This document shows, one piece after another, positions 24,156 through 43,359 of a DNA stretch of 64,000 nt (positions within the stretch are counted from its first letter, which is position 1; each line of letters opens with the position of its first letter). The stretch lies in contig CAJBNH010000173.1 of the NCBI GenBank assembly GCA_903955385.1, positions 1 through 64,000 on the forward strand. Direction: 5' to 3'. The position numbers were made by a program, and so were the translations under genes. Below the pieces are notes generated by a model. The model saw only the letters and a list, made by a program, of their open reading frames with translations, did no database searches and was not told the DNA's origin. The stretch comes from an uncultured Myxococcales bacterium (GTDB lineage: Bacteria; Myxococcota_A; UBA9042).

Positions 24156-24283
24156 TCTAGCGAGCGAGCCCGGCGGCGCATCCGGGTGGACGGCACGAGT
24201 GGACTACGGCAGCCGTCGGGGCTGTCCGAGGGAGTTTCCTAGCAGGGGCCATGGGGGCTCCACGACAGAAAGGGGATGAAGCA

Positions 24284-25576: not shown

Positions 25577-25948
25577 ATGTCGTTCGTCACGCAGTTCGAG
25601 TTCACGCTTCCGCGCGGCTATGTCGACAAGGACGGCAACGTCCACAAGAAGGGTGTCATGCGGCTGGCAACGGCCAAGGACGAGATCCTTCCGCTGCAGG
25701 ACTACCGCGTGCAGAACAACCGCGCGTATTTGGTCATCATCCTGCTGTCGCGAGTGATCGAGACGCTGGGCAGCCTGAAGTCCATCAACCCGTCGATCAT
25801 CGAGTCGCTTTTCTCGACCGACCTTGCCTACCTGCAGGACTTCTATCGCCGCATCAACGAAGAAGGCACGGCCATGGTCAAGGCCAAGTGCCCTGAGTGC
25901 GGTCACCAGTTCGACGTCGATACGGGAGGTGGTCTGGGGGAATCGTGA
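25577..25948 (+). CDS. Tail assembly chaperone-like protein with C-terminal Cys pair
   Basis: 123 residues. The beginning (FEFTLPRGYVDKDGNVHKKG, then RLATAKDE) and the helical centre (VIETLGSLKSINPSIIESLFSTDLAYLQDFYRRINEE) follow the pattern of phage tail assembly proteins of the Mu gp41/gpE type (Phage_TAC). Its end carries CPECGHQFDVD, a half zinc-finger. In phages these chaperones coat the tape measure protein before tube assembly. It lies between the two sheath genes and its stop overlaps the start of the next gene (GTGA). A run of five Gs sits three codons before the stop. Confidence 0.7.
   Translation: MSFVTQFEFTLPRGYVDKDGNVHKKGVMRLATAKDEILPLQDYRVQNNRAYLVIILLSRVIETLGSLKSINPSIIESLFSTDLAYLQDFYRRINEEGTAMVKAKCPECGHQFDVDTGGGLGES
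25936..25948 (+). other. Candidate -1 ribosomal frameshift site
   Basis: GGGGG (25936-25940) is followed by AATCG and the TGA stop of the upstream chaperone-like gene. In-frame codons are CTG GGG GAA TCG TGA. A one-base backward slip on the G-run enters the frame of the next gene, which is open across the junction. It would give a fusion like gpG-gpGT of phage lambda. The heptamer is not a canonical X-XXY-YYZ site. Confidence 0.35.
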
Positions 25949-26106: not shown

Positions 26107-26154
26107 ACAAGGGTGCCGGAGTCGTCGGAGCGATCGCGCGCTGCAGGAGCACCC

Positions 26155-28080: not shown

Positions 28081-28881
28081 ATGGCAGCGACTGCAGCACG
28101 CAAGCGAACCGCGAAGATGGTGGCGCCCGAGGCAACGCGCGCGACGGGGCGGATGCAGGTCCTCCCTGCCGGTTCACCCGAAGTGGTTTCCGTGTCGGTC
28201 GACGAGCACGTCGCCGTGGCGGCGATGGTCGACAAGAAGACGTCGGGGTCGACCTCAACCAAGGGCAAGACGACCTCTGGTACTACCTCGACCAAGCAGG
28301 ACCCCAAGAAGGGGGCCTCCGTCACACTGAACGACACCGGTATGACCAACACGTCGAAGGCTAAGGTCGACGGATATGCCGGCCAGAGCCCCGCCGGCAT
28401 GGGCGGTTCCGCGTCCGGCAGCACGGGCCGTGACGGTGACCCCGACGTCGCCTACGCCTTCGAGGTCAAGATCGGCAGCATCTCCTACGGGATGTTCAGC
28501 GAGATCTCCGGGTTGTCGTGGAAGGCAGAGCCGGTGGCCATCCGGTCGGGCGGCAACAACGAGCATGGCCTCAACATGCGCGGCCCCGGCAAGTTCGAAC
28601 CGCTCGTCATGAAGCGCGGCTGGTTCGCCTCCAGCGGCGAGTTCTTCGACATGCTGCTCGAATCCCTGTCCGGCAGCGACCCGCGGGGCACGACACAGAC
28701 CGGTCGGGTGAACATCACGATTAGCGTTCTGAATCGCAAGTACTCGGAAATCGGAAGCTATCAGCTCAAGAACGCCTTCATCATCGAGTATACCGGGCCG
28801 ACGCTCAACTCGATGTCCGGCCAGGTGGGCTTCGAGCAGATCCGGATGGCCTACGACAACTTCATCTACCAGCCGAAGTGA
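28081..28881 (+). CDS. Inner tube protein with long N-terminal extension
   Basis: 266 residues. The tube domain is residues about 118-266: YAFEVKIGSISYGMFSEISGL, the KFEPLVMKRGWF strand, and the end NAFIIEYTGPTLNSMSGQVGFEQIRMAYDNFIY, as in Pvc1/Afp1 and gp19-type tubes (usually 145-160 residues). The first 117 residues are extra: a basic start, then a Lys/Ser/Thr/Gly-rich, probably disordered segment (about 52-115). Tube rings stack inside the sheath and carry the payload, so an extension could lie in the lumen. Only this one tube gene is seen. GGAGG precedes the ATG. Confidence 0.88.
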   Translation: MAATAARKRTAKMVAPEATRATGRMQVLPAGSPEVVSVSVDEHVAVAAMVDKKTSGSTSTKGKTTSGTTSTKQDPKKGASVTLNDTGMTNTSKAKVDGYAGQSPAGMGGSASGSTGRDGDPDVAYAFEVKIGSISYGMFSEISGLSWKAEPVAIRSGGNNEHGLNMRGPGKFEPLVMKRGWFASSGEFFDMLLESLSGSDPRGTTQTGRVNITISVLNRKYSEIGSYQLKNAFIIEYTGPTLNSMSGQVGFEQIRMAYDNFIYQPK

Positions 28882-28924: not shown

Positions 28925-31900
28925 GTGACAGGCCAGATGCCGACGACGGAACAACAGGACGTGCTGACGCTGCACAAGGGTATCCTGCGTCGTTGGGAGT
29001 CCACCGATGCAATGGCAGAGCGGCATCAGACCTCGGGCGGCGCCCTGACGGGAGCCGAACGACTGATGGCCGGGCTGCCGGGCCTCGCGACGTTGACTGG
29101 CACGTTCGGAACGCACGCATGGGAGCTCGCGACCTCTATCGCCAGCGACCCGATGATGCTGCAGCGCTTCTCGCTGGACGCCCGCGCGATGTCAGTGTCC
29201 GACCTCGCCGACCTCATCCAGCTGGTCCTCGAAGAAGAGGAAGTAGCTGCTGAGACAGACGAAATTGCGCCCAGTCGCCCCCGCGCGGTGGCCAAGTCCG
29301 CCACGGCAAAGTCGGCCAAGCCCTCGGCCCCGGCCCAGGCCAAGCGACGTACGGCCGCCCCGGGCATGGCGCGCAAGCTGAAGGCTGTTCGCAAGCTGGT
29401 CGCCGAGCTGAAGTCGGGCCAGCGAGCGGTCGCCCCTCCACCCGGACAGCAGGCAGGCCGCGACCCCGCGATGTCCGCCGACAGTTCGTTGGGTGGAGCC
29501 TCCAGACCCGAACCGGCTGGGCAGATGGGGTCCACGGACCCCGCTCGCGGACCTACCGACGCGGCCGTGGCACGCCCCTCGACTCGACCGGCGGCCGCTG
29601 CCGTACGTGTCGATCGTTGGCTGGATCCGCTCTCGACCGGCGTCGATCTGATGAACCGCGCGCCGCGCTCGCTGCGAATGGCTCAGGAGGCCGCGGACTT
29701 CGCGTTCCTCGCTCCCACCGCAGACGAGCCGTTCAGTCCGGCCGCGCAGCAGTCCGGGCGTTCTGTGGCCCCGCGTGCCGCCTCGATGTTCGCCGCCACC
29801 GCGGGCGCAGCCGACCTTCCCACTTCGGTGGCTTCCTCGACCTCTGGCGGCCCGCGTGCTCCGGCCTCCGGAACAGCGCAATCGGCTGTATCTGCTGCGG
29901 TTGCCTCGCCAGCTCGCTGGGCGGCAGCAGTCGCGCGAGCTGATGCGTACCGTCCGGTTGCCGCTGGTTCGGCGTCGTCGGGTCCGGCGGTTGCGACGCG
30001 CTCGGCGTCTCCGCTGGCCGCGCTTGCGCCCGCCGTCGCGTTCGCCGCGCGCAAGCTCGAGTCGCTGCGTCGTTGGGATGCCCGCTCCGATCGTCGTCCG
30101 GCCCAGGCAACGGCCGCCTCTGTCGCCGACGCGGCAGCGGTTGACGCGGCAGCGCGAGGGCCAGCAACCGCAGACCTTCGGACGCAATCCCAGTCAACGC
30201 CTCGCCTTTCTGGTGAACGCCTTGCTGCGAATGAAGGTTCCCCGGACCGATTCGCTCAGGTGATGGGAACGGCGGCGGCGCCGGCCTCTCGATGGGGTCG
30301 ATTGGTGCCACGGCTGGCTGCCTGGCTCGAGCGGTCCGACACCGCGCTGACGAATGCGCCGACCGCGACTGCAGAGCCGCGCCGTGCGTATGCCGCCAGT
30401 GAGACGGGAGCTGGCGAGTGGCTGGCGCAGGGAGCGAACGAAGCTCTCTCGACATCGGACGCGGAGACGACGGCTGCGCCGGTACGGTCGACTACCGCGA
30501 CTGCCACCGCGACCAGAGTTCCCGCTTGGATCGCTCCGCAGGCCGCTCGTCGGGCTGAGGTCGGTCGCGCGGAATCCGCACGTGTCGCAGCTGCCCGTAA
30601 CCCCGCATCGCGCATGGGGGCCGTCGCCGCAGGTGCGACAGAATCCGTCGCGCCACTTGGGACGTCCTCTGCCACATCGTTTGCCAGTGTCTCGTCGGAC
30701 CCGGCCTCGTCAGACCGCCCGCGCTCGCTCGGCTTCGCAGCCCTCGCAGCCGCAGGGCTCTCGCGTCGGTTGGCTGACCGGCTGATTGGAGGGCTCGATC
30801 CTCAGGTCGAGACGCCCTTCTGGCAGCCGCGGTCCGCGCAAGCGCCTGCTGCGAATGGAGTCGACACTGCTACTTCGATGGCCGCCGGAGCCTTCAACAC
30901 GGGCGCGACCAACGCTCGCGCCTACTCCGGAGAGCTCGCGGCCGCCGCGGGAGCCGGGGATTGGCTGGTGTCGGAGTCGGAAGCCGCTGAAGGTATTGTT
31001 GAAACTGCAGTTGCTGAACGGCGCGGGACGGCACCGGCCGCTCGTAGTGCAGCGGCGACGGGGCGGTCCGAAGTTCAGGCTTCCCGGCTGCAGTCTGGTG
31101 GCAGCACGGGCCCACGTGCGGGGCAGACGCTTCGTTCGGCTGGTGCCGTGCTTGCCCATGCGGCGGCCGCGGCGATCGAGCGCGTGGTGCAGCAGAGCCT
31201 GCGGTCCGATCGGCTGCGCTCCGCGATGGCACCAACGGCTGCGGGACGGACTCAACCCGGCGCCTCTGCGATGGATTTTGCCGGCATCGCCGACACGGGG
31301 CTGCTGGCCTCGGCTCCGAACGGTCTGCGGGATGTCCTGACGCCGTGGTTGGCCACTCGCGCAGGCGCAGCGCCCAGCACAGCAGTAGCTGGTGACCGCG
31401 CCGCTGCCGCTGCCGGTGTCGGCGCAGAGTTCGTGCAGCTCGCGCCGGGCGATGAGGCGGTTGGCCTTGATTCGTCTGTGGAATCGACCTCGACCCCAGC
31501 ATCAGGAACACGAGCTGCATCGGCGTCCATGACCCGGTCAGCCGCGACCGACAGGACGAGGACGGCGACCAGGTCCACGCCGGCCGAGCGCCGATTCGCC
31601 CAGCTTGCCGCCGCAGTGACCGATGCCAAGGAACCGGCCGCCTTGCGCGCGGCCCTCACCCTGTTCGGCACCCAGGCATCGGCGGTCGCGGGGACCGAGG
31701 TGGCGCGTGCCTTCCTCGCACGCTGGTTCGGCCGCCCGGAAGCTGCCAGGACTCTGGCTGCCGCCGTGGCTCCGTCCGGTGCTGCCGAGATGGTGGCGCT
31801 TCGTCGTGAGATGACCGCGGACGCTTCCCCAAGCTCGGGCTCAAGCGCGGTCGCCGTTGGCCGGGCGGCCGAAGCCAAGCCCGCGTCCTCCGACCAGATC

Positions 31901-32914
31901 GTGCTCACCGGGCTGGCTGCTCTGGCGGCCTTGGGCAAGCCAACTGCAGAGCGCGAGGCCGCTTTCCACGAGGCCGCCGGTCGACAGATGAGGTTTGGCG
32001 ACGTTGAGCGCGAGTTGTTGGCCCCCAGCGCCGAGACTGGCCTCGTCGACCCGTCTATGGCGGTGGCGGACGTGCCAGCTCGGGGCCTTGGCCGCAGCCT
32101 TTCCGGAAAGTCGACCGCCGTGCAGCTTCACGAGTTCGTGCCGGTTGGTTTGCGACGCGGACGCGGGTTGGTCAGCAGCCATCGCCGCTCGGGCAGCCTT
32201 GTGCGCATGTCGCCGCGGACTTCGACCTCCAGCAGGGTCGGTTACGGCGACTCGGCGTTGGGCGCAGGCGAGATGGTGGGGCTCGGAATGAGCGATGCCA
32301 CCGCTTTCCACGGCGACGTCGGCCCGATGCCGGCAGCGCTGCGAGGTGCGGACCGACTCGGCGGAATCGTTCAGGCTCGCAGGGCCATGCGAGGCGCGGG
32401 TCAGTCGGCGCCGATGCCGCTACCTGGCACGCGAGGCGAGGGTCCGGGCAGCGTGCCCTCGAATTTCACTTACGGTCAGCCGACGGAGTTCGTGAACCCC
32501 GCCGCCGCGGTGCAGAACGCAGTCGCGCAGCAGGGCCGCAGCTCTGGTGCGACCGCGGCCGGACGAAGCACGCAGGCCTCTGCAATGGCTCGGGTATTGT
32601 CGGTGACGGCGGCCCCGTCGGAGAACATGTTGCCGTTGGTGGCCCCGGCTGCACACGCGATGGTCGCAGCAGCCGCAGCCAAGCCGTTGAGCGAGTCGAT
32701 CATCACCAGCGGCGCCGATGCGACGCTGGGTATGCCCACGATGGGGCAGTCGAGCAGCAAGCACGGTGGCGGCAAGGGGCAGGAACAGGGCGGCAAGGAC
32801 GAGGCCGGTGGGCCGGGTGCGGCGCAGGATTTGGACGCGCTGGCCATGAAGATCGCGCGCTCGGTCATGATGCGACTGAAGCGCGAGCGAGAGCGAAGGG
32901 GGATCCATGGGTGA
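28925..32914 (+). CDS. Giant Ala-rich protein in the tape-measure position
   Basis: 1329 residues, starting at a GTG preceded by AGAGAGGTGA. I recognise no named family. Residues 1-110 are mixed helix (LHKGILRRWESTDAMAERHQ, FSLDARAMSVSDLADLIQLVLEEEE). Most of the rest is dominated by Ala, Ser, Thr, Arg and Gly with scattered Trp-containing helices (RWGRLVPRLAAWLERSD, FLARWFGRPEAART). The last 30 residues form a charged helix (DLDALAMKIARSVMMRLKRERERRG) after a Gly/Gln/Lys-rich linker. Its place after the tube and before the LysM and hub genes is that of the phage tape measure, and its reading frame is intact over 4 kb. No transmembrane segments are evident. Length-ruler function is an inference; a cargo or scaffold role is possible. 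Confidence 0.7.
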   Translation: MTGQMPTTEQQDVLTLHKGILRRWESTDAMAERHQTSGGALTGAERLMAGLPGLATLTGTFGTHAWELATSIASDPMMLQRFSLDARAMSVSDLADLIQLVLEEEEVAAETDEIAPSRPRAVAKSATAKSAKPSAPAQAKRRTAAPGMARKLKAVRKLVAELKSGQRAVAPPPGQQAGRDPAMSADSSLGGASRPEPAGQMGSTDPARGPTDAAVARPSTRPAAAAVRVDRWLDPLSTGVDLMNRAPRSLRMAQEAADFAFLAPTADEPFSPAAQQSGRSVAPRAASMFAATAGAADLPTSVASSTSGGPRAPASGTAQSAVSAAVASPARWAAAVARADAYRPVAAGSASSGPAVATRSASPLAALAPAVAFAARKLESLRRWDARSDRRPAQATAASVADAAAVDAAARGPATADLRTQSQSTPRLSGERLAANEGSPDRFAQVMGTAAAPASRWGRLVPRLAAWLERSDTALTNAPTATAEPRRAYAASETGAGEWLAQGANEALSTSDAETTAAPVRSTTATATATRVPAWIAPQAARRAEVGRAESARVAAARNPASRMGAVAAGATESVAPLGTSSATSFASVSSDPASSDRPRSLGFAALAAAGLSRRLADRLIGGLDPQVETPFWQPRSAQAPAANGVDTATSMAAGAFNTGATNARAYSGELAAAAGAGDWLVSESEAAEGIVETAVAERRGTAPAARSAAATGRSEVQASRLQSGGSTGPRAGQTLRSAGAVLAHAAAAAIERVVQQSLRSDRLRSAMAPTAAGRTQPGASAMDFAGIADTGLLASAPNGLRDVLTPWLATRAGAAPSTAVAGDRAAAAAGVGAEFVQLAPGDEAVGLDSSVESTSTPASGTRAASASMTRSAATDRTRTATRSTPAERRFAQLAAAVTDAKEPAALRAALTLFGTQASAVAGTEVARAFLARWFGRPEAARTLAAAVAPSGAAEMVALRREMTADASPSSGSSAVAVGRAAEAKPASSDQIVLTGLAALAALGKPTAEREAAFHEAAGRQMRFGDVERELLAPSAETGLVDPSMAVADVPARGLGRSLSGKSTAVQLHEFVPVGLRRGRGLVSSHRRSGSLVRMSPRTSTSSRVGYGDSALGAGEMVGLGMSDATAFHGDVGPMPAALRGADRLGGIVQARRAMRGAGQSAPMPLPGTRGEGPGSVPSNFTYGQPTEFVNPAAAVQNAVAQQGRSSGATAAGRSTQASAMARVLSVTAAPSENMLPLVAPAAHAMVAAAAAKPLSESIITSGADATLGMPTMGQSSSKHGGGKGQEQGGKDEAGGPGAAQDLDALAMKIARSVMMRLKRERERRGIHG

Positions 32915-33575
32915 GATGGCGCGGATCGCGATCCACAAGGACGACAAGGCCAAGTCCAAGTTGGGCAAGAAGTTCGAGTTCGTCGACTTCGCCTTCAACC
33001 CCGAGGCCGTGCGTGTCGCCAAGACGCTCAAGCCCAGGGAACAGAAGGTGGCCGGCCAGAACGCGCCTTCCCCCCAATTTACGGCGGGCGATGCGGCTAC
33101 CATCGAGTTCGGCGACCTCACGTTCGACACGTTCGAGACCCGAACGAATGTCTACCATGAGCACGTCTCGAAGCTCGAGGCGCTGATCCTCGTCGACGAG
33201 GACCTGCACCGCCCCGTGCGCGTCATGTTCACGTGGGGCCAGGGCTGGGGATCGGGCGACGGCCAGATCAACACCGGCATCTGGTTCGTCACGGGGCTGG
33301 ACGTCAACTACACGATGTTCCTGCCGAATGGCACCCCGGTGCGCGCGACATGCAAGCTGACGCTGACCGAGGTGCCGACCGAAGCGTCGAACAAGAACAG
33401 CCCGGACACGGCGCACGTGCATCTGGTGGGCCGCAGCGACACGCTGCAGAGCATCGCCTTCCGCGAGTACGATGACGCAGGTCAGTGGCGCCGCATCGCC
33501 GAGGCGAACGGCATCGACAACCCCTTGGAGCTGCAGCCGGGCCGCCGCCTGCTGATTCCGCCGATCCTGAAGTGA
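32907..33575 (+). CDS. Tube-baseplate adaptor with C-terminal LysM
   Basis: 222 residues. The first 160 residues match the CIS tube-adaptor type (Pvc7/gp53-like): FEFVDFAFNPEAVRVAKT, the FGDLTFDTFETRTNV strand, VMFTWGQGW and FLPNGTPVRATCKLTLTEV. A LysM domain follows at about 170-220 (VGRSDTLQSIAFREYDDAGQWRRIAEANGIDNP, GRRLLIPP). It fixes the tube to the hub and may grip the cell wall. It overlaps the giant gene by 8 bp, so translation is coupled. A second ATG at 32916 is possible. Confidence 0.88.
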   Translation: MGEMARIAIHKDDKAKSKLGKKFEFVDFAFNPEAVRVAKTLKPREQKVAGQNAPSPQFTAGDAATIEFGDLTFDTFETRTNVYHEHVSKLEALILVDEDLHRPVRVMFTWGQGWGSGDGQINTGIWFVTGLDVNYTMFLPNGTPVRATCKLTLTEVPTEASNKNSPDTAHVHLVGRSDTLQSIAFREYDDAGQWRRIAEANGIDNPLELQPGRRLLIPPILK

Positions 33576-33634: not shown

Positions 33635-34789
33635 ATGGACAAGAATACACCGACCATCAACGTCAAGATCGCGGGCAACACCCAGATCGCGACCGACTCG
33701 GGCGAGAAGCTCGAGACTCGGGGAGGCTCAGGCATCCTGTCTGTGACCGTGGACTTGCGTCTGGACAATCCGGACATGTTCTCGGTCGAGTACGACATGA
33801 TGAAGCTGGAGAGTCTGAACCTGATTGACTCGTTCAAGCCCGGCGACACGGTCGAGATCTCAATGGGTTTGACGGAGGAGTCGGTCCTTTGCGAGGGCGA
33901 GATCGCCTACATCGAGCCCAGCTTCGACGTCGAGGCCGGCTACCGCACGACCATCTCGGGCTACCACAAGCTCCACCGCCTGACCCGCGGCCAGCGTTCG
34001 CGCGTCTGGGGCGACGGTCTGGCCGCTGAGACCGCTCCCACAACGGCCGTGCAGCAGGTCTTGAATGAGTCGAAGGCCAGCGTCGGCGGAGCGAGCGACA
34101 GCATCAGCGCCGGAGAAGTGACCGCGGCGCAAGTGAAGCTGAACTACATCCCGCAGCTCAACATGAGCGATTTCGAGTTCCTGCGGGCGATCGGCGCCAA
34201 CCTCGAGTACAAGGCCGACCGCAAGGACGGTCAGGCCGTCAAGTTCACCAAGCCCAATCCCAAGTCGGAAGCGGTGGCCAAGCTCTCGCGCGACCGCGCG
34301 GACCCGTCGGCCGGAGAGGACAGTCTGATTCTGTCGGCAAACTTCCGCCTGTCGACGGTGCAGCAGTACGCCGCCGTCGAGGTGCGAGGCTGGGACCCGA
34401 TCAAGAAGAAGGCGATCGTCGAGAAGGTCACCTCCAGCACCTATGTCTTCGACGAGTCGGTCAAGGGCCATCAGGACACGGGCAAGGGCTTGTACAACAG
34501 CGCGTCAGCAGGGCGGAAATACACCGTTGTTGACCAACCGGTGGAGTCTGCCGCGGAAGCCAAGCAGATCGCCCAAGCGCTGTTCGACCAGTTCTCGATG
34601 GACTTTCTGACGGGTGAAGCGGTCATCAAGGGCGACCCCAAGCTCATCCCAGGCGCCACGGTCGAGTTCGTCGGGTTCGGCAAGGCATTCAGCGGCAAGT
34701 ACCTGATCACCTCTGCGACGCACAGTTATCGCCCCGAGGAAGGCTACCGCACGGCCATCGCCTACGCCCGCAACGCAAAGGGCGCGTAA
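33635..34789 (+). CDS. Baseplate hub, phage late control gpD family
   Basis: 384 residues, like P2 gpD/gp27 and the N-terminal half of VgrG and Pvc8. Recognisable parts are the opening beta-domain (SVTVDLRLDNPDMFSVEYDM), IDSFKPGDTVEISMG, the TTISGYHKLHRLTRG strand, YIPQLNMSDFEFLRAIGANLEY and the closing LIPGATVEFVGFGKAFSGKYLITSATHSYRPEEGYRT. It should trimerise under the tube. It ends after the gp27-like part: there is no gp5/OB or beta-helix spike attached, and no separate spike gene follows. Confidence 0.88.
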   Translation: MDKNTPTINVKIAGNTQIATDSGEKLETRGGSGILSVTVDLRLDNPDMFSVEYDMMKLESLNLIDSFKPGDTVEISMGLTEESVLCEGEIAYIEPSFDVEAGYRTTISGYHKLHRLTRGQRSRVWGDGLAAETAPTTAVQQVLNESKASVGGASDSISAGEVTAAQVKLNYIPQLNMSDFEFLRAIGANLEYKADRKDGQAVKFTKPNPKSEAVAKLSRDRADPSAGEDSLILSANFRLSTVQQYAAVEVRGWDPIKKKAIVEKVTSSTYVFDESVKGHQDTGKGLYNSASAGRKYTVVDQPVESAAEAKQIAQALFDQFSMDFLTGEAVIKGDPKLIPGATVEFVGFGKAFSGKYLITSATHSYRPEEGYRTAIAYARNAKGA

Positions 34790-34903
34790 CCCATCAAGAA
34801 CACGTGTGAAGTGCGCGATGTCTGCCGTCAGGTCGGCGACGTCGTGTAGCTTGTCGTTCAACTGCGGGATCGTGCGGGGTTCTTTTCGTGAGTTGGCGGC
34901 AAT

Positions 34904-34921
34904 CCTGACCATTTGGTCAAA
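34904..34921. promoter_or_regulatory. Inverted repeat CCTGACC-N4-GGTCAAA, copy 1
   Basis: TGACC-ATTT-GGTCA with flanks CC and AA. The same 14 fixed bases occur at 44231-44248 upstream of nuoE with spacer GAAA. Here it lies about 140 bp before the gp25 promoter. The spacing is that of a dimeric helix-turn-helix regulator site. Confidence 0.5.
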
Positions 34922-35059
34922 TATGCCTTTGCGCGATCTCGCCAATTCCGGATCTTGCCCAACAAGACAACTATAGGGAATTGCAGGAAACGTCGGTATG
35001 CCGGGGGACCGCGGTGCCCGTTCAGAGGCAGGATCACGTCCACTCGCGGCGACCGTGCG

Positions 35060-35087
35060 TTGACAGGCCCAACCCCGTAGTTAGCAT
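35060..35087 (+). promoter_or_regulatory. Promoter of the baseplate gene group
   Basis: TTGACA (35060-35065), 16 nt, TAGCAT (35082-35087), 45 bp before the gp25 start. It matches the window's other promoters and suggests that gp25, gp6, gp7 and the fibre gene form a separate transcript. Confidence 0.6.
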
Positions 35088-35132
35088 GGCCGACTGCGCG
35101 ATGTGTTCAGCCGGTTGTTCCGGAGGGTGTTC

Positions 35133-35534
35133 ATGGCCAAGAGCTTTCTCGGTCGGGGCTTGAAGTTCCCGCTGCAGATCAATGCCTTCGGTGGCATGGC
35201 CACGTCTGACGGCGACGAGAACATCGAGGACGGTGTCCGCTGCATCATCGGCACTGCCGTGGGTGAGCGCGTGATGCGCCCCTCGTTCGGTTGCCGCATC
35301 CACGACTTCGTGTTTCATCCGAACTCGTCCACGACCGCGGGCATGGTGTCGTTCTACGTGCGCGAAGCCCTGCAGAAGTGGGAGCCGCGCATCACAGACG
35401 TCCAGGTCAGCGCCAACCCCGACCCCAAGAACGAAAACGTCTTGTCGGTCGAGGTGAAGTACAAGATCCGCTCGACCAACATCGACAAGAACTACGTCTA
35501 TCCGTTCTATCTCAGGCGGGAGCAAGACCTATGA
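35133..35534 (+). CDS. Baseplate wedge protein, gp25/GPW family
   Basis: 133 residues. T4 gp25/P2 gpW-like proteins nucleate sheath polymerisation on the baseplate. The motif NIEDGVRCIIGTAVGERVMRPSFGCRIHDFVF is typical, including the ERVMRPxFGC core, followed by YVREALQKWEPRI and the VEVKYKIRSTN strand. GGAGGG is well spaced before the ATG at 35133. Its stop overlaps the next start (ATGA). Confidence 0.93.
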   Translation: MAKSFLGRGLKFPLQINAFGGMATSDGDENIEDGVRCIIGTAVGERVMRPSFGCRIHDFVFHPNSSTTAGMVSFYVREALQKWEPRITDVQVSANPDPKNENVLSVEVKYKIRSTNIDKNYVYPFYLRREQDL

Positions 35535-38530
35535 TCCCGAGTCCGAATCTCGACGACCGCAGCTTCGAGGACATTGTCCAGGAAGCGATTCGCCTCATCC
35601 CGCAGTACTGCCCGGAGTGGACCAACCACAACCGGTCGGACCCCGGCATCACGCTCATCGAGCTGTTTGCCTGGATGACGGAGATGTCGCTGTACCGGAT
35701 GAACCGGGTGCCGGAGAAGAACTTCCTGGCGTTCCTGGAGCTGATGGGCATTTCGCTGACCCCTCCGCAGCCTGCGCGCACGGTGGTCAAGTTCGCGATT
35801 CACCCCAAGGCGGACCGGGTGGTGGTGCCGTCAGCGACGCGCGTGGGGACCAAGCCCGGTGTCGACGGCTCGTACGCGACGTTTGAGACCGATGCCGACG
35901 TCGTCGTGACGAACAACGATCTCGTGAAGTGCATGAGCCAGCACCACGACACGTTCGCCGACAACACGGGCCTGCTGGGCAAGCGTCGCGAGGGCGTGGC
36001 GCTGTGGTCGGGCGTGCGTGCGGTCGAGCGTTTCCTGTACCTGGGGGATAAGCGGCTCGAGTCCTTCGACGAGTCCAGCATCCTGACAGTGCGCACGACT
36101 TCCACGCTGGACGTCCCCCAAGCGCTGGTGCGGATGCTGGAGTGGGAGTACTTCGACGGCGAGCGCTGGCGCGAGCTGCAAAGTCCGTCGATCGAGACCG
36201 ACGAGGATCAGGTGGCGCTGATCGGCCCACCGGCCATCGCGCCGACCACCGTGGGCGAATCGACCGGCCTGTTCTTGCGCGGCCGTCTGTCCGAAGTGCC
36301 GACTGCGCCGACTGACACGATCTGCGATCTGGTCAAGATGCGCTTGGAGCTGACGGGCGAGGGGGAACGCCCCGACCTTGCGATGGCCAACATCGACGGC
36401 GGACTGTTCCTGAAGCTGGACCTCGACCGCAACACGCAGCCGTTTGGGCGTGCGCCGGCGGTCGATAGCGCCCTGTACCTCGCGTGCGACAAAGTGTTGG
36501 GCCATCCGGACGCCGATGTTCGCATCGACATCGAGCTGGCGGACCCGTCGATCGTACCGCTGCCGCTCGCCTCGCCCGACCTCGTGCTGGCGTGGGAGTA
36601 CTGGAACGGCAAGCGCTGGAAGCTGTTGGGTCGCGTGGGCTTTGGCGACTTCGACGAAGAAGACCCGGGCCTCGACTTCCGCGACGAGACGCTGTGCTTG
36701 ACGGCCAACGGACACGTGGCGTTTCGACGGCCCAAGGACATCAAGCCGGTCGAAGTCAATGGCAAGGAAGGCCATTTCATCCGTGCCCGCATCGAGCGAG
36801 GCGACTACGGTGTGGCGGGCACCTACGAGCTCGAGAACGATCGCTGGGTCTGGAAGGACCCGCGGCCGCTGCGCGCCCCCACGCTGAAGAGCGTCGCCCT
36901 GCGGTTCGTGGAAGCGGAGCACCCGTTTGAAAAGGTCATTTCTTACAACGACTTCGTCTACTCGGACCACACTGCGGTTGCCGCCGAGGAGATGAAGCCC
37001 TTCCAGCCCTTCCAGCCCGTGGCCGAAGAGAGCCCGACGCTGTACTTGGGCTTCAAGGACCCGTTCCCGAACGAGAAGGTGCAGCTCTTCTTCGACTTGG
37101 CGGAAGCTGAGGGGCCGGGGCGCCGCCTGCGCGCGGGTCCGGGGCAGACGTCGAAGCAGCTGAGCCAGGTGCACTCAGAGCAGGTCATCCACTGGGAATT
37201 CTGGAACGGCAAGGACTGGATGCCGCTGCTCGCCCGCGACCACACCCACGGCTTCACGCAGTCAGGGTTTGTCGAGTTCGTGGGGTCCAAGGAGCACCGC
37301 AGCAACAAGCGCTATGGCGAGAACCTGCACTGGCTGCGGGCCCGTCTGGAGTTCGGCGGCTATGACGAGCCGCCGATGTTGCGCAACGTGGTGTTGAACT
37401 GCGCCTACGCCAGCAACGTGACGACCTACGGTGAGACCATCCTCGGTTCGTCCAAGGGCACGCCCAACCAGAGCTTCAAGTTTGTGCGCGGCCCTGTGCT
37501 GCCCGGGCAGGAAGTGTGGGTGCGCGAGCGTGAGCGGCCGCCGTCCAACGAGCTGGAGGTCCTGACGTCCTGGTTTGGGGACAAGGCGTTGATGGACGAC
37601 CCGGACGGTGAAGGCGTTTTGGTGCAGTGGAAGGAGGTCGACAGCCTCTACGAGTCCGAGCCCGCGTCGCGCCACTACACCAAGGACGTGGTCACCAACA
37701 CGGTGCGCTTCGGCGACGGTATCCACGGCATGGTCCCGCCCAAGGGTGACCGCAACGTTGTGTGCAGGCGCTACCAGATCGGCGGCGGCGAGGACGGCAA
37801 CGTGCCCCCCGAGGCGATCACGGTGATGCTGCAGGCGGTGCAGTACGTCGAGTCGGTGCGCAACATCTTCGCGGCATCGGGCGGCTGCAATCTGGAGACG
37901 GTGGACGAGGCCAAGCTGCGCGGTCCGCACTCGCTGAAGGCGAAGGGCAGGGCGGTGACGGCGGAAGACTTCGAGTGGCTGGCCAAAGAGGCCTCGAACT
38001 CGGTCGCGAGGGTCTGCGCGCTGCCCGCGTATGAGCGCGAGGGCGAGATCGCCGTGGTCGTGGTGCCCAAGGTGGCCGAGAACCACCCGGACTTCATGGA
38101 CAAGCCGATTCCGTCGACGGAACTGTTGCGCAAGGTCCGCAACCACCTGTCCGATCGCAAGCTGCTCAGCACCGTGTTGCACGTACAGCGGCCGAAGTAC
38201 CGCGAGCTGTCGGTTCACGTCGAGCTGATCGTGCTGCAGACCGCGGCAAGCGACCGGGTGAAGGCGGAGATCGAGAAGCGAATCCGCGTGTTCCTGCACC
38301 CGCTGAAGGGCGGTCGCGACGGCAAGGGTTGGCCCTTTGGACGTGCCGTGTACCGCGTGGACCTGTACCACGTGATCGAGGACGTGCCGGGCGTTGACTT
38401 CGTGGATCGGGTGCGGCTCGTCGATGAGAACACCAAGATCGAGGTCGACCAGTTCAAGGTCGGCGCCGGCGAGCTGGTGCACGTCGTGCGGGTCGAGACC
38501 ATCGAGAAGGCGCACGAGCGCATCGTCTAG
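35531..38530 (+). CDS. Giant baseplate wedge protein, gp6/gpJ-like (Pvc11 type)
   Basis: 999 residues, like the large Pvc11/Afp11 wedge proteins. The start PNLDDRSFEDIVQEAIRLIPQYCPEWTNHNRSDPGITLIELFAWMTE is the family hallmark. The middle contains repeated beta-sandwich segments with similar EYWNGKRWK, EYFDGERWR and EFWNGKDWM motifs (about residues 210, 360 and 560), so it is internally repetitive. The C-terminal third (VTAEDFEWLAKEASNSVARVCALP, then YRELSVHVELIV, ending in a gpJ-like helix) is the baseplate J core. It starts by ATGA overlap with gp25, showing translational coupling. Confidence 0.9.
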   Translation: MIPSPNLDDRSFEDIVQEAIRLIPQYCPEWTNHNRSDPGITLIELFAWMTEMSLYRMNRVPEKNFLAFLELMGISLTPPQPARTVVKFAIHPKADRVVVPSATRVGTKPGVDGSYATFETDADVVVTNNDLVKCMSQHHDTFADNTGLLGKRREGVALWSGVRAVERFLYLGDKRLESFDESSILTVRTTSTLDVPQALVRMLEWEYFDGERWRELQSPSIETDEDQVALIGPPAIAPTTVGESTGLFLRGRLSEVPTAPTDTICDLVKMRLELTGEGERPDLAMANIDGGLFLKLDLDRNTQPFGRAPAVDSALYLACDKVLGHPDADVRIDIELADPSIVPLPLASPDLVLAWEYWNGKRWKLLGRVGFGDFDEEDPGLDFRDETLCLTANGHVAFRRPKDIKPVEVNGKEGHFIRARIERGDYGVAGTYELENDRWVWKDPRPLRAPTLKSVALRFVEAEHPFEKVISYNDFVYSDHTAVAAEEMKPFQPFQPVAEESPTLYLGFKDPFPNEKVQLFFDLAEAEGPGRRLRAGPGQTSKQLSQVHSEQVIHWEFWNGKDWMPLLARDHTHGFTQSGFVEFVGSKEHRSNKRYGENLHWLRARLEFGGYDEPPMLRNVVLNCAYASNVTTYGETILGSSKGTPNQSFKFVRGPVLPGQEVWVRERERPPSNELEVLTSWFGDKALMDDPDGEGVLVQWKEVDSLYESEPASRHYTKDVVTNTVRFGDGIHGMVPPKGDRNVVCRRYQIGGGEDGNVPPEAITVMLQAVQYVESVRNIFAASGGCNLETVDEAKLRGPHSLKAKGRAVTAEDFEWLAKEASNSVARVCALPAYEREGEIAVVVVPKVAENHPDFMDKPIPSTELLRKVRNHLSDRKLLSTVLHVQRPKYRELSVHVELIVLQTAASDRVKAEIEKRIRVFLHPLKGGRDGKGWPFGRAVYRVDLYHVIEDVPGVDFVDRVRLVDENTKIEVDQFKVGAGELVHVVRVETIEKAHERIV

Positions 38531-38569: not shown

Positions 38570-39457
38570 ATGGTCGAAGCCCGCCCCACCACGCGAAGTA
38601 CCTTGCCCCCTCGGGCTGGCGAAAGACGCGCCAAGAAGATCATCGTGCCAGAGCTGGCCGGCATGGCGTTTCAGGACGCGTGCATCGTGCTGGAGCAGGC
38701 CGGGTTCGGTCCGCCGCTGCCGCGCTATATCGACGCCTACGTCCCCGAGAACACGGTTGTTTCGCAGGCGCCCGTTCGCGGTCAGCTGGTCGACAGCACC
38801 ACGACGGTCGAGCTGAGTGTTGCCAAGGCGAGCTGGGTGCGGTTCCTGCCGCAGCTGTATCAGGAGCAGGGCTCGGGCGACAACACGATGTTGCACGAGT
38901 ACCTGTGGATCTTCCAACAGTTGCACGACAAGGTGACCCACAATCTGGACCGGCTGCCGCAGCTGTTCCGGCCACTGGAGACCGAGCCACGCTTCCTGGA
39001 CTGGCTGGGTTCCTGGATTGCCCTGCAGTTGGAGAGCGACTGGCCCGAGCAGAAGAAGCGCAAGTGGCTGAAGTTCGCCCCGGCGCTGTACAGCATGCGC
39101 GGCACCAAGGCGGCGATGACCGAGCTGCTGGAGATGTACATCGGCGTGCGTCCGGACATTCGCGAGAACGAGTGGCCTTTCGAGCCCTTCCGCGTCGGTG
39201 TCTCCAGCGAGATCGGCCTCACTTCGACCGTGTTGCCGTCGATGAACCTGTCGCACTGCTTCGTCGTTCACTTGCCGATGGCGCCGCAAGACGTCAGCGA
39301 CGACACCATCGTGCGCATCCATCGGGTGATTCAGGCCGAGAAGCCCGCTCACACCACGTACTTTCTGACCTTCCAGACCGACGAGGCCTTTGTGGACCTC
39401 GATCCCTTCATGACCATCGGCGAGGATTCCCTTGCCGACGAGTCCGCTCCCGAGTGA
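38570..39457 (+). CDS. Baseplate wedge protein gp7/gpI-like with N-terminal PASTA domain
   Basis: 295 residues. Residues about 90-295 follow the P2 gpI/Pvc12 tail protein pattern: SWVRFLPQLYQEQ, FLDWLGSWIALQLESDWPEQKKRKWLKFAPALYSMRGTKAAMTELLEMYIGV and HCFVVHLP. Residues about 24-86 are a PASTA domain: VPELAGMAFQDACIVLEQAGF, then ENTVVSQAPVRGQLVDSTTTVELSVAK. PASTA modules bind peptidoglycan or beta-lactam-like ligands in kinases and penicillin-binding proteins. Fusion to a wedge protein suggests attachment to a cell wall. AGGAA precedes the ATG. Confidence 0.87.
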   Translation: MVEARPTTRSTLPPRAGERRAKKIIVPELAGMAFQDACIVLEQAGFGPPLPRYIDAYVPENTVVSQAPVRGQLVDSTTTVELSVAKASWVRFLPQLYQEQGSGDNTMLHEYLWIFQQLHDKVTHNLDRLPQLFRPLETEPRFLDWLGSWIALQLESDWPEQKKRKWLKFAPALYSMRGTKAAMTELLEMYIGVRPDIRENEWPFEPFRVGVSSEIGLTSTVLPSMNLSHCFVVHLPMAPQDVSDDTIVRIHRVIQAEKPAHTTYFLTFQTDEAFVDLDPFMTIGEDSLADESAPE

Positions 39458-39507: not shown

Positions 39508-41052
39508 ATGGCCGATATCTCTGCCCGAAACTACAAAAGGCTCAACTTCTTCCGCGGCTTCCGCACGACGGAGAAGGACTGGAACGACGGGGAGCAGTAC
39601 CACACCGACAAGCGCAAGCTGCACAACCGGATGATGCACGGCCCAGGCATTGTTCCCCAGGCGCTGGGCGGACTTCGCGCGTCCGGTCGCGGTCGCGGCG
39701 AGCTCGCGGTCGAGGTGCAGAGCGGCTACGCCGTCGACGCAGAAGGGCACGACATCTTCGTGTGGGAGCCTGAGATCAAGCAGCTGAATCCGGCGGACTT
39801 CAAGCTGCCGGCGACGGTGTACCTGGTCGCGCGGTACATCGAGGAGTTCTCGGACTTCATCTCCTACAAGGAGAATCTGGACTTTAAGGGCCACCGCCGC
39901 ATCACAGAGAGCGCCAAGGTCGAGTGGATCATCACCGAGCCCGACATCTTCAGCGAGGTCGAGCTGGCGCGCGTCAGCCTGACCAAGGACGTCAAGCGAG
40001 TCGTCGACGCCAAGGACCCCTTCAACCCACAGCCGAACGAGCTGGATCTGCGGTTTGTGCCGGTCGCGGGCATCACGGGCAGCTTCATCTCGCCCGCGCT
40101 GCTGTGGGAGATGCTGGAGATGATCCGGCGCTCCAAGACCGTGTATCAGTACATGTATCACCAGATGAAGATCCTGCCGGCCTCAGACGTGCTGCACGGC
40201 TTCCTGACGCTCGAGATGCTGTTGCACGCCCAGCTGGTCGACCTGCGCAACGTCTTCTCGCTGTACCTGATCATCCTGAACCATCAGTGGACGCTGGTGG
40301 GCGACATCGAGGCCAACGTTCCGCAGATCTCCAGCCAGCGTGACTTCGCGAACTTCAAGAAGCACGTCGAGATCGCGATGCAGAAGTACGAGGAGCGGCA
40401 CTTCAGCCTCGAGTTCCTCAACTCGCTGATGAATTACCAGACCGAGTGCTACAAGTTCATGGAGACGATGTTCGACAAGCACCTCAAGGCGCCCAAGAAG
40501 ATCGAGGTCAAGACGACCGACACCAACGCCTTGATCGAGAACATGAAGGTGCGGTCGGCGCAGTTCACCGACAACATGAGCCTCGAGGGCGAGAACCTCG
40601 CACTCGTCGACATGATCGATCCCATCGACCCCGAGAGCGAAAAGACGCACAACTGGCGTGTCTCAGGCGAGCGCGACAAGTACCGCACCCGCCAGAAGCT
40701 CAAGTACCCCGACGGCGTCATCGTCGAGGACGCGGGCATGGCGTTCGAGGGCGGCCAGCTGGACTTCGAACTGCGCAACATCGAGCCCGGCAAGGACGTC
40801 TACGTCGTGTGGCGCATGGACTACGTACACGGCGACTGGGAGGCGGAGGTCGAGGCCAACGAGCGACGCCTGGCGAACTGCATCTGCGCCGGGTCAGACC
40901 GCAAGTTCCGGTGGCGCAACTGGGTCTATGTCATTCCGGCCGAGCATGTTCGTGAGGTGGGTCTGCGCTTGCGACTCAAGCCCGTCACGGCCGACCGCGA
41001 CGTCAACGTGTTCAAGATGTGGGCGTATCAGCCGACGGCACGCAAGGCCTGA
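39508..41052 (+). CDS. Fibre-type baseplate-associated protein
   Basis: 514 residues. The N-terminal 90 residues match the domain common to eCIS and phage fibre/receptor-associated proteins: RLNFFRGFRTTEKDWNDGEQYHTDKRKLHNRMMHGPGIV, then VEVQSGYAVDAEGHDIFVWEP. A beta-rich part to about 190 is followed by a long helical region (about 195-350: LLWEMLEMIRRSKTVYQYMYHQM, FLTLEMLLHAQLVDLRNVF) and a C-terminal beta-sandwich (about 390-514). It lies after gp7 as tail-fibre genes do and may set target binding, but no known receptor-binding domain is visible. Confidence 0.7.
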   Translation: MADISARNYKRLNFFRGFRTTEKDWNDGEQYHTDKRKLHNRMMHGPGIVPQALGGLRASGRGRGELAVEVQSGYAVDAEGHDIFVWEPEIKQLNPADFKLPATVYLVARYIEEFSDFISYKENLDFKGHRRITESAKVEWIITEPDIFSEVELARVSLTKDVKRVVDAKDPFNPQPNELDLRFVPVAGITGSFISPALLWEMLEMIRRSKTVYQYMYHQMKILPASDVLHGFLTLEMLLHAQLVDLRNVFSLYLIILNHQWTLVGDIEANVPQISSQRDFANFKKHVEIAMQKYEERHFSLEFLNSLMNYQTECYKFMETMFDKHLKAPKKIEVKTTDTNALIENMKVRSAQFTDNMSLEGENLALVDMIDPIDPESEKTHNWRVSGERDKYRTRQKLKYPDGVIVEDAGMAFEGGQLDFELRNIEPGKDVYVVWRMDYVHGDWEAEVEANERRLANCICAGSDRKFRWRNWVYVIPAEHVREVGLRLRLKPVTADRDVNVFKMWAYQPTARKA

Positions 41053-41156
41053 CCCTGCTTGCTCGCGTCCGCGCGGCTGTGCCATTCTTGGCGCGCTTCG
41101 GGACGGCAGGACGGTGACGACCGCAGCGACTTGACCAAAGGGTACGGGAGGACGGC

Positions 41157-41798
41157 GTGATCTGGGACTTCTTCCGCGCCCTCGGTCAGGGACGCATCGA
41201 CAACGTCGTGAACACCGCAAACGCCAAGAAGGCGGGCGTCATCACCAAGGCGAAGACCGGCGCGGCCAAGCAGTTCAACAAGGCGGTCGATGCGCCGGGC
41301 AAAGCGGTCAAGGGTGCGGTCAAGGGCGGCAAGCAGGACGAGAAGCCCAAAGAGAAAGCCAAGGGAGGCGACATGGGGTGGTTCAGCAAGAAGCGCTCCG
41401 AGCCGGAGCGTCAGGATTCTCGCGGCGGCGGCGGTGACTATGCCGAGCCCGAGAAGACGGTCGCCATCGATTTGAATCAGATCAACCGCGGCACCTTCAA
41501 GCCCGTGGTCGGCTGGGTCGTCGTGATGAACGGCGAGCTGCGCGGGCGCGACTTTCGTCTGGTCGACGGCAAGAACGTGATGGGCACCGCCGCCGACTGC
41601 GACGTCGTTCTGACGGACCCCTACCTGTCGTCCAAGCACGCGGTCATTCGCCATGAAAACGGGGTGTTCACCTTGGTCGACCTCGACTCGACCAACGGCA
41701 CCTATCTGAACGAGCGCCGAGTCTCGAAGGAGGACTTGATCGACAACGACAAGGTCCGCCTCGGCCGCTCCGAGATGAAGTTCAAGTCCGTCGAGTAA
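41157..41798 (+). CDS. Cytoplasmic FHA-domain protein
   Basis: 213 residues from a GTG with GGAGG upstream. The N-terminal 70 residues are Lys/Ala-rich and helical, then a flexible acidic/Gly segment. The FHA domain runs about 118-210: GTAADCDVVL, YLSSKHAVI (S159, H161) and LDSTNGTYLN, which carry the phosphothreonine-binding Ser and Asn. The sequence EPEKTVAIDL (T101) just before the FHA domain resembles in position the regulatory Thr of GarA/OdhI, which folds back onto its own FHA domain when phosphorylated; this is a guess. It is followed 11 bp later by the VWA-FHA gene. Confidence 0.88.
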   Translation: MIWDFFRALGQGRIDNVVNTANAKKAGVITKAKTGAAKQFNKAVDAPGKAVKGAVKGGKQDEKPKEKAKGGDMGWFSKKRSEPERQDSRGGGGDYAEPEKTVAIDLNQINRGTFKPVVGWVVVMNGELRGRDFRLVDGKNVMGTAADCDVVLTDPYLSSKHAVIRHENGVFTLVDLDSTNGTYLNERRVSKEDLIDNDKVRLGRSEMKFKSVE

Positions 41799-41809
41799 CG
41801 GAGGAAGCC

Positions 41810-43333
41810 ATGCTGCCCTGGAAGCGCTGGAGCCTGGCTCTGGCTGCGCTTGCCCTGCTCCTGCCCGGTCTGGCCTTGGCCGACAGTCGCGTGGTCATCG
41901 ATCACGTCGCCTACGATGCCAAGGAAAGGACGTTGACGATGTACGTCGACGTGCTGGACGTGAAGGGCAACCCGGTCGAGAACCTATCGCCGGCCGACCT
42001 GAAGCTCACCGCAAGTGGCAAGCCGCTCGTCACCTCCGACATTCAGCTGCAGACGGCGCAGGACGCCGGTGAGCCGATCGCGGTCGTGCTGTTGCTGAAT
42101 GCGTCGCGGGCCTACCAAGCGATGGGGGAGTCCGAAGAACACTCGACCTATCAGCAGGAGAAGGAAGGCGCCGCAAGCTTCATCAAAATGCTGTCGGGTA
42201 ACGACAAGGTCGCGGTCGTGCAGTACCGCGAGGGCTTCCCCCACGAGGTGGTCTACTCGTTCGCCAGTGATTTCAAGCAGGCGGCAGAGGCCGTCAGCAA
42301 CGCGACCGTGCCCGACGGGGATGCCCTGCCGGAGAACAACCTGGGCAAGCAAGTCGGCACCCAGACGTTGTCGCCCGAAATCGTCCGCGCCATCGACAAG
42401 TCGATGAACTATCTGGCGGAAAACCTGGAGAAACTGGGTTCGGCGCGTCGGCGCTTCATCGTCATCATGTCGGACGGCAAGGACCGCGAGACGCGCAAGG
42501 ACAAGCTGATCTCGAAGATCCAGAACGTGTTGGACAAGTACGAGGAGTACAAGATCCGTATCCACGCCATCGGCTTCACCGCCGATGACCCGATGTACTT
42601 GCCGCTGCTGCAGACCATCGCGAACAGCACGGGTGGCGTCTACAAGGGCATCGACCCGGCGGCCAAGGAAGGCTTCGGCAGCATCCCGTCGGTCTGGGAC
42701 GGCATCGCGGGACGCATCAAGAAGCAGTACGTCATCAAGGCGGTACTGGCCGACATTCCCGAGGGAGGCGAGCCGGTCAAGGGCAAGGACGAGGTCAATC
42801 ACGTCATCGGCTTGAGCGTTGCGATGAAGGACGGCGCGGTGTCTGAGGCCGTGTTCAACGACGTCCGCATGCCCAAGCCCAGCATCGCCTGGGGCGCGAT
42901 CCTCAAGTGGGTCGGCATCGTGGTCGGCGGCCTGCTCGGCATCGGCCTGATCATCTTCCTGATCATTTTCGTTTCCCGTCGCAAGGGGTCAGACGAAGGC
43001 TCTGGCTCGGGCGGCAACCAGCGTCAGGAGTACGACGGACCCTCGCGTGGCAAGCTGGTCGTCCTGGCCGGGCCGCTGGCGGGCGAGACCTTCCCGCTCA
43101 TCGACGACGTCACCACCATCGGTTCGATGAAGGGCAACACCATCGTCATTCAGGACGGGTCGGTGTCACGCCGCCACGCCGCCATCAAGATCGACCAGAT
43201 GCGCTATGAAGTCGCGGATATGAACTCGACCAACGGCATCCTGGTCAACGGTCAGCGCGTCCACAAGGTGTTTCTGAAGGACGGCGACCGCATTCATATC
43301 GGCTCGACCGAAGTGCAGTTCAACCTGAAGTAA
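41810..43333 (+). CDS. Membrane VWA-FHA protein (periplasmic VWA, cytoplasmic FHA)
   Basis: 507 residues. A signal sequence (1-24, cut after LALA) leads to a periplasmic von Willebrand A domain (about 89-310). Its metal site is degenerate: NASRA (97-101) replaces DxSxS, although IVIMSDGKD (217-225) is normal. One transmembrane helix spans about 363-388, followed by RRKG and a cytoplasmic FHA domain (about 415-507) with GSMKGNTIVI, SVSRRHAAI and MNSTNG. It can pass a signal across the inner membrane by coupling VWA contacts outside to phosphothreonine binding inside. It has GGAGG upstream and ends the injection-system gene group. Confidence 0.92.
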   Translation: MLPWKRWSLALAALALLLPGLALADSRVVIDHVAYDAKERTLTMYVDVLDVKGNPVENLSPADLKLTASGKPLVTSDIQLQTAQDAGEPIAVVLLLNASRAYQAMGESEEHSTYQQEKEGAASFIKMLSGNDKVAVVQYREGFPHEVVYSFASDFKQAAEAVSNATVPDGDALPENNLGKQVGTQTLSPEIVRAIDKSMNYLAENLEKLGSARRRFIVIMSDGKDRETRKDKLISKIQNVLDKYEEYKIRIHAIGFTADDPMYLPLLQTIANSTGGVYKGIDPAAKEGFGSIPSVWDGIAGRIKKQYVIKAVLADIPEGGEPVKGKDEVNHVIGLSVAMKDGAVSEAVFNDVRMPKPSIAWGAILKWVGIVVGGLLGIGLIIFLIIFVSRRKGSDEGSGSGGNQRQEYDGPSRGKLVVLAGPLAGETFPLIDDVTTIGSMKGNTIVIQDGSVSRRHAAIKIDQMRYEVADMNSTNGILVNGQRVHKVFLKDGDRIHIGSTEVQFNLK

Positions 43334-43359
43334 CAGCGGACCGAGCGCCCCCTGCGCCT

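What the first reader, a model, noticed from the sequence alone, without database searches (positions are those of the whole stretch)
41157..43333. FHA pair with a periplasm-to-cytoplasm VWA-TM-FHA protein at the end of the injection locus
One cytoplasmic FHA protein and one protein with signal peptide, VWA, transmembrane helix and cytoplasmic FHA follow the structural genes on the same strand. In type VI secretion, FHA proteins and Ser/Thr kinases control firing after threonine phosphorylation. Here a membrane VWA could sense contact or cell-wall state and signal to a phosphothreonine-binding pair. I know of no described eCIS controlled this way.
Basis: inference. Interest (0 to 1): 0.75.

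Follow-up and report, generated by a model that had tools for sequence, protein, structure and literature searches.

The report
Membrane FHA module of contractile injection systems
In uncultured relatives of myxobacteria, the genes for a phage-tail-like injection machine end with two genes for a protein pair that spans the inner membrane; this pair is inherited with the machine across many bacterial families and probably ties it to the membrane or tells it when to fire.

Summary
Window 41157-41798 encodes a cytoplasmic FHA protein (213 aa). 41810-43333 encodes signal peptide, VWA, one TM helix and a cytoplasmic FHA (507 aa). They close an operon for a contractile injection system (CIS), directly behind the baseplate genes. 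The link is not chance: in 52 genomes of the class, the FHA gene is in 36 of 40 that carry the baseplate-adjacent protein (U514) and 0 of 12 that lack it, and follows it directly in 23 of 36. The same order recurs in five families outside the class.

The sheath is closest to the cytoplasmic CIS of Streptomyces coelicolor, where an unrelated membrane protein (CisA), encoded at the same place, is needed for firing. I think the pair is a membrane anchor and firing module of that kind. The phosphothreonine part is open: the canonical phosphate-binding Arg is missing from the soluble FHA in every parsed orthologue (0 of 55) and from both window FHAs, though Ser and Asn remain and a linker Thr is invariant. 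The VWA lacks its metal site. No T6SS adaptor gene (TssK) was found in the genome.

No held paper describes FHA proteins in a non-T6SS CIS. All function is inferred.

The parts
41157..41798 (+). Soluble FHA protein, 213 aa, GTG start with Shine-Dalgarno; conserved N-terminal basic helical segment, linker with invariant Thr101, C-terminal FHA domain
   Evidence: (FHA 1.1e-18; 24-orthologue alignment)
41361..41375 (+). Shine-Dalgarno-like AAGGGAGG and in-frame ATG (codon 73, 'MGWFSKK'): candidate internal translation start giving a ~141-aa short form
   Evidence: ATG or GTG in all 24 orthologues; SD stronger than in 200 of 200 synonymous shuffles; a relative (G027) has only copies matching model positions 65-214
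41457..41459 (+). Codon of Thr101 in the linker motif EKTVAIDL; invariant Thr in a variable linker, candidate phosphorylation site
   Evidence: invariant in 24; kept in other families
41577..41765 (+). FHA domain of the soluble protein; canonical Arg replaced by invariant Thr144, Ser158 and Asn180 kept
41810..43333 (+). VWA-TM-FHA membrane protein, 507 aa
41810..41881 (+). Signal peptide (residues 1-24, cleavage predicted after ALA by inspection)
   Evidence: sequence reading; conserved in orthologues
42149..42628 (+). VWA domain, periplasmic by topology; MIDAS DxSxS absent
   Evidence: (PF00092 2.8e-6), alignment, fold matches to VWA proteins
42890..42982 (+). Transmembrane helix (residues 361-391), followed by SRRKG
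43112..43303 (+). Cytoplasmic FHA domain; closest solved folds GarA/OdhI; Arg position is Ser
39508..41052 (+). U514: baseplate-adjacent protein, N-terminal CIS13-like, weak fold match to TssK; immediately upstream of the FHA gene
   Evidence: orthologues
38570..39457 (+). Cis12/Tail_P2_I-like baseplate protein with N-terminal PASTA domain
35531..38530 (+). Cis11/Baseplate_J-like protein
35103..35534 (+). gp25/Cis9-like protein
   Evidence: position in the operon and conservation with gpJ
33635..34789 (+). VgrG/gp27-like hub protein
32907..33575 (+). CIS_tube + LysM protein
28925..32914 (+). 1329-aa low-complexity protein in tape-measure position
   Evidence: no family match
28081..28881 (+). 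Inner tube protein
26113..27915 (+). Second sheath protein
25577..25948 (+). Small conserved protein, weak match to tail assembly chaperone
24251..25465 (+). First sheath protein, closest to S. coelicolor CIS sheath (8bky)
23531..24118 (+). Pvc16/Cis16-like cap protein

Best explanation
The two genes encode a dedicated accessory module of a cytoplasm-based contractile injection system: a membrane anchor and firing adaptor that stands where other CIS clusters encode tail fibres or CisA. VWA-TM-FHA sits in the inner membrane with its VWA in the periplasm and its FHA in the cytoplasm. The soluble FHA protein bridges it to the baseplate (U514 and the Cis12-like protein). A change perceived on the periplasmic side, or phosphorylation of the soluble FHA at linker Thr101, would dock or release the particle at the membrane and trigger the baseplate. 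Shown: gene order, co-inheritance, domain architecture, predicted topology, sheath kinship. Inferred: that the proteins touch each other and the baseplate, and that they control docking or firing. Open: whether docking depends on phosphorylation.
For: Order gpJ-gpI(PASTA)-U514-FHA-VWA-FHA in nearly all same-family genomes where contigs reach, in other families of the class, and outside the class in L096, L098-L105 (L106 ends within the FHA gene). FHA present in 36 of 40 U514+ and 0 of 12 U514- genomes of the class (Fisher p=9e-9; genomes are related, so read it as a description). In family f5 the pair lies on other contigs than the CIS but is still lost with it (8 of 10 against 0 of 3). In L101 the FHA genes lie between U514 and an AAA ATPase and an eCIS_core protein. 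Sheath closest to S. coelicolor CIS 8bky/8bl4 (470 bits against 204 for Pvc2; [quoted passage not shown] Membrane anchors are also known in tCIS (Cis13, PMC8894136) and proposed in haloarchaea (PMC11566945). U514 has a CIS13-like N-terminus and itself no strong TM segment (max KD19 1.43). TssK was not found in the genome.
Against: No interaction or phenotype data. VWA-FHA is not homologous to CisA as far as known and has the opposite topology (N-out/C-in against N-in/C-out). G022 keeps VWA-FHA with no CIS found; f41 and f48 have the FHA away from any CIS gene seen, so the pair may have other roles. G039, G050 and G051 have U514 but no FHA found (incomplete genomes). The U514-TssK fold match is weak (pTM 0.37, rmsd 13 A).
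Confidence: 0.55

Rival explanations
1. Phosphothreonine switch as in the T6SS: a Ser/Thr kinase phosphorylates Thr101 (or a baseplate Thr); an FHA domain of the pair binds it and licenses assembly or firing. It can coexist with the anchor role.
For: Invariant Thr in a T-x-x-I/V motif in an otherwise variable linker, kept in other families. The FHA of VWA-FHA folds like GarA/OdhI, which are pThr switches with the Thr in an N-terminal tail. 15 of 51 parsed VWA-FHA orthologues keep the Arg. In f30 a kinase gene sits about 5 kb downstream of the pair on the same strand in 5 of 5 loci, including one without U514 nearby. Fha-phospho-TssL activates the T6SS of Agrobacterium (PMC3953482).
Against: Canonical Arg absent in every parsed soluble FHA (0 of 55) and Ser in the window's VWA-FHA. 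In A. tumefaciens Fha, R30A alone reduced and R30A/S46A abolished secretion (PMC3953482), so loss of Arg weakens but does not exclude binding. The window's nearest kinase (20139-21722, minus strand) is outside the operon, and its position next to SurE/APRT looks like housekeeping synteny.
Confidence: 0.3
2. A general envelope-stress or signalling module that became neighbour of the CIS and acts mostly elsewhere.
For: 25 FHA domains in the genome; VWA-FHA without CIS in G022; pair on separate contigs in f5; FHA away from CIS in f41/f48.
Against: Co-loss with the CIS even where unlinked (f5, f8); same position behind U514 in eleven families.
Confidence: 0.1
3. The VWA protein is a secreted toxin or effector, as Geller et al. 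list VWA among eCIS-associated anti-eukaryotic domains (PMC8213781).
For: Position at the 3' end of the operon, where effectors often lie.
Against: Signal peptide, TM helix and cytoplasmic FHA make it an inner-membrane protein of the producer; no known toxin domain.
Confidence: 0.03

Closest known systems
CisA (SCO4242) of the Streptomyces coelicolor cytoplasmic CIS
   Same: Bitopic membrane protein encoded directly downstream of the baseplate genes, where eCIS encode fibres; the CIS of this window has its closest solved sheath in that system (PMC12237407, PMC10066040).
   Different: CisA is described as N-in/C-out with a sugar-binding domain and no FHA mentioned; here N-out/C-in with VWA outside and FHA inside, plus a second soluble FHA protein.
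T6SS Fha/TagH with PpkA-PppA (threonine phosphorylation pathway)
   Same: FHA protein encoded with a contractile machine; kinase nearby in family f30.
   Different: No TssK found here; the TagH model is far below its cut-off (40.8 against 120 bits); canonical FHA Arg missing; a VWA membrane partner is not part of that pathway as described.
Cis13/Cis12 anchors of thylakoid CIS (Anabaena)
   Same: Baseplate-bound proteins link the particle to a membrane; U514 has a CIS13-like N-terminus.
   Different: U514 has no strong TM segment; membrane insertion would be through the VWA-FHA protein.
GarA/OdhI/FhaB FHA switch proteins
   Same: Closest FHA folds and profiles; Thr in the tail before the FHA.
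   Different: Those keep the Arg and act on metabolic enzymes; here Arg is Thr or Ser.
Hbor_38620 membrane protein of haloarchaeal CIS
   Same: Membrane protein conserved with one group of CIS clusters, proposed anchor (PMC11566945).
   Different: Six TM helices, no FHA or VWA reported.

Membership tests
Contractile injection system locus | Sheath, tube, baseplate wedge, hub and cap genes in one array | tested here: met
Cytoplasmic CIS of the Streptomyces (IId) type | Sheath closest to CIS-Sc rather than Afp/PVC/tCIS | tested here: met
   8bky/8bl4 best for both sheaths; no tree was made
Cytoplasmic CIS of the Streptomyces (IId) type | Particles stay in the cytoplasm and fire in the producer | not testable with these tools
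   needs cryo-ET of cells
Extracellular CIS | Tail fibre, AAA ATPase and eCIS_core effector in the locus | tested here: inconclusive
   None seen between cap and VWA-FHA in the window; AAA and eCIS_core follow the FHA genes in L101
CisA | Sequence homology to CisA | not tested
   No CisA sequence was at hand; reported architecture and topology differ (PMC10066040, PMC12237407)
T6SS | TssK baseplate-membrane adaptor in the genome | tested here: not met
   PF05936 no match in G000 (control E. coli rings)
T6SS Fha/TagH | TIGR03354 over its cut-off | tested here: not met
   40.8 and 35.2 bits against 120.25
Canonical pThr-binding FHA | Arg after the Gly of the beta3-4 loop | tested here: not met
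   soluble FHA Thr/Ala/Lys/Ser, never Arg in 55 parsed; window VWA-FHA has Ser
Canonical pThr-binding FHA | Ser of SxxH and Asn of NG | tested here: met
   S158, N180 invariant; S453, H456 invariant
Metal-binding VWA | MIDAS DxSxS | tested here: not met
   NASRA in the window, no DxSxS in any orthologue aligned
tCIS Cis13 anchor | CIS13 family over cut-off with own TM helix | tested here: not met
   36.9 bits against 370, N-terminal part only; no strong TM segment in U514

The most novel reading that the evidence does not exclude
A lineage of cytoplasmic contractile injection systems has its own trans-membrane control module, unrelated to the T6SS membrane complex and to CisA: a periplasmic VWA sensor wired through paired FHA domains, and in some families a co-encoded Ser/Thr kinase, to the baseplate. 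The soluble FHA is made in a long and a short form from one gene by an internal start. This would be a third, independently evolved way of fixing a phage-tail machine to a membrane and deciding when it fires.
Probability: 0.35. Interest if true: 0.82.

Novelty: new variant of a known kind. Interest (0 to 1): 0.66.

Why it matters
How non-T6SS contractile systems find a membrane and decide to fire is open; CisA in Streptomyces is among the few examples, and the hot-spring study of Roseiflexus notes that the mechanism may differ where close CisA homologues are absent (PMC12998442). A conserved, nameable gene pair in a large Gram-negative group makes the question testable, points to a periplasmic input, and would show that FHA proteins were recruited to contractile machines outside the T6SS. 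It also suggests that some VWA proteins listed as eCIS toxins may be producer-side membrane proteins.

Tried and rejected
Chance neighbourhood: rejected by class-wide co-occurrence and order and by the recurrence outside the class. Housekeeping synteny with MurU/Nuo: these follow the pair only in part of family f1, not elsewhere. T6SS: no TssK. VWA as toxin: rejected on topology. U514 as TssK homologue: Foldseek gives TssK (6n38, 5mwn) at E about 2e-4 over the shoulder and neck, but TM-scores are low, the model is mediocre (pTM 0.37), and sequence profiles give nothing; kept as a lead. The viral fold library was uninformative for U514. Window kinase 20139-21722 as the cognate kinase: its synteny is with SurE/APRT, so not claimed. 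Sigma-70 promoter/terminator scan of 40900-43500: nothing above chance.

Full report
OBSERVATION. The two ORFs are real and exactly placed. The soluble protein has one FHA domain and no TM segment. The second has a signal peptide, VWA, one TM helix and FHA. The helix is followed by SRRKG, so by the positive-inside rule the VWA is periplasmic and the FHA cytoplasmic. They follow a run of CIS structural genes, with 104 bp and 11 bp gaps, and are followed by a gene on the other strand. FHA domains are frequent in this 5.3-Mb genome (25), so the domain alone is weak evidence.

LINKAGE. Orthologues of VWA-FHA (46-64% identity) occur in 20 of 22 genomes of the same family, counting the window's own. 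tblastn and profile maps show gpJ-gpI(PASTA)-U514-FHA-VWA-FHA in nearly every one where the contig is long enough. Over the 52 genomes of the class, the FHA (profile E<1e-35) is in 36 of 40 genomes with U514 (the protein directly upstream) and in none of 12 without it (Fisher p=9e-9, excluding the own family 1e-5; phylogeny not corrected). In 23 of the 36 the FHA starts within about 1.2 kb downstream of U514 on the same strand (coordinates). Exceptions in the own family are G003 (different contigs) and G009 (rearranged). In family f5 the sheath, U514 and FHA loci are all on different contigs, yet pair and CIS are still mostly present or absent together (8 of 10 against 0 of 3). Family f8 lacks both. 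The exceptions that count against a strict bond are G022 (VWA-FHA, no sheath, no U514) and G039, G050 and G051 (U514, no FHA; incomplete genomes).

BEYOND THE CLASS. A search of 379 genomes of the phylum found the soluble FHA in five further families directly behind U514: f30, f36, f38, f42 and f58. Outside the class the protein often carries an added zinc ribbon. In f38 the array runs FHA, VWA-FHA, a second VWA-FHA-like protein, a further FHA protein, AAA ATPase, DUF1257, eCIS_core, so the FHA genes are embedded inside the eCIS cluster. In f30 a Ser/Thr kinase gene lies about 5 kb downstream of the pair on the same strand in five of five loci (L096-L100). One of these (L097) has no U514 nearby, which suggests that the kinase goes with the FHA pair. 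In f41 and f48 the FHA was found away from CIS genes.

WHAT KIND OF CIS. Both sheaths match the S. coelicolor CIS best (8bky/8bl4; 470 bits for sheath 1, against 204 for Pvc2 and 172 for the Anabaena sheath; structure identity from PMC10066040). [quoted passage not shown] The Anabaena thylakoid CIS is anchored by Cis12 and Cis13 (PMC8894136); a haloarchaeal CIS has a six-helix membrane protein as proposed anchor (PMC11566945). The window cluster has no recognisable fibre, spike or AAA gene between its cap and VWA-FHA genes, U514 has a CIS13-like N-terminus without a strong TM segment, and the membrane protein sits at the CisA position. Hence the anchor/firing-adaptor reading.

PHOSPHOTHREONINE. 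Three observations pull in different directions. First, the canonical phosphate-binding Arg is not there: the soluble FHA has an invariant Gly143-Thr144 in 24 orthologues, and in the wider set the residue is Thr 47, Ala 5, Lys 2, Ser 1, never Arg (18 unparsed). VWA-FHA has Ser in 29, Arg in 15, other in 7. Second, the other contact residues (Ser158, Asn180, mostly His161) are kept, and in Agrobacterium Fha the single R30A mutation only reduced secretion (PMC3953482). Third, the linker has an invariant Thr101 in a T-x-x-I/V motif (EKTVAID, DKTQAID, SKTTVVD and so on) amid variable sequence, kept in other families with Leu or Phe also at the last position. This resembles the tail Thr of GarA/OdhI, whose FHA is also the closest fold. 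I leave phospho-dependence open (about 0.3).

VWA. The MIDAS motif DxSxS is absent from all aligned orthologues, so metal-dependent adhesion is unlikely; a scaffold or protein-binding role fits better.

INTERNAL START. Codon 73 of the FHA gene is ATG or GTG in all 24 orthologues (the five Val are all GTG) and begins the conserved motif MGWF/MGIF. A Shine-Dalgarno sequence lies upstream in most (mean duplex energy -9.4 kcal/mol; synonymous shuffles -7.5 +/- 0.4, 0 of 200 as low; internal Met background -2.7). G027 has two copies that match only model positions 65-214. A long and a short product are plausible; sequences are related, so the shuffle test overstates significance.

LITERATURE. No paper found in the held library joins FHA domains with a non-T6SS CIS; the library lacks most subscription journals, so novelty is provisional. 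Geller et al. list VWA among eCIS-associated toxin domains (PMC8213781); for this architecture a producer-side membrane role is more likely.

VERDICT. Observation confirmed; interpretation partly supported. New variant of a known kind: a CIS with its own VWA/FHA membrane module. Every functional statement is inference.

Noticed in passing
window 41361-41375: Likely internal translation start (SD + ATG at codon 73) in the FHA gene, conserved as ATG/GTG over families; suggests long and short FHA products.
   Followed up: partly
window 38570-39457: Cis12/Tail_P2_I-like baseplate protein with an N-terminal PASTA domain, conserved in other families (e.g. L043).
   Followed up: partly
window 39508-41052: U514: beta-helical-beta baseplate-adjacent protein whose model weakly matches T6SS TssK shoulder/neck; possible baseplate-to-membrane adaptor.
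   Followed up: partly
window 34789-35133: No spike/PAAR gene between the hub and gp25 genes, and no AAA ATPase recognised among the structural genes; not searched for elsewhere in the genome.
   Followed up: no
L096-L100: In family f30 a Ser/Thr kinase gene lies about 5 kb downstream of the FHA pair in 5 of 5 loci; in L096 it directly follows a TSP3-repeat protein gene.
   Followed up: partly
L101 9257-19403: Family f38 CIS cluster with four FHA-containing genes, AAA ATPase, DUF1257 and eCIS_core in one array.
   Followed up: partly
L040 10164-11651: VWA-TM-FHA orthologue in a genome with no sheath and no U514 found (G022): a copy without a CIS.
   Followed up: no
window 28925-32914: 1329-aa Ala/Ser/Arg-rich protein in tape-measure position, no family match, diverging fast.
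   Followed up: no
L034 3664-6948: 1094-aa Asp/Cys-rich repeat protein inserted between APRT and the CIS cap gene in a relative; absent in the window.
   Followed up: no
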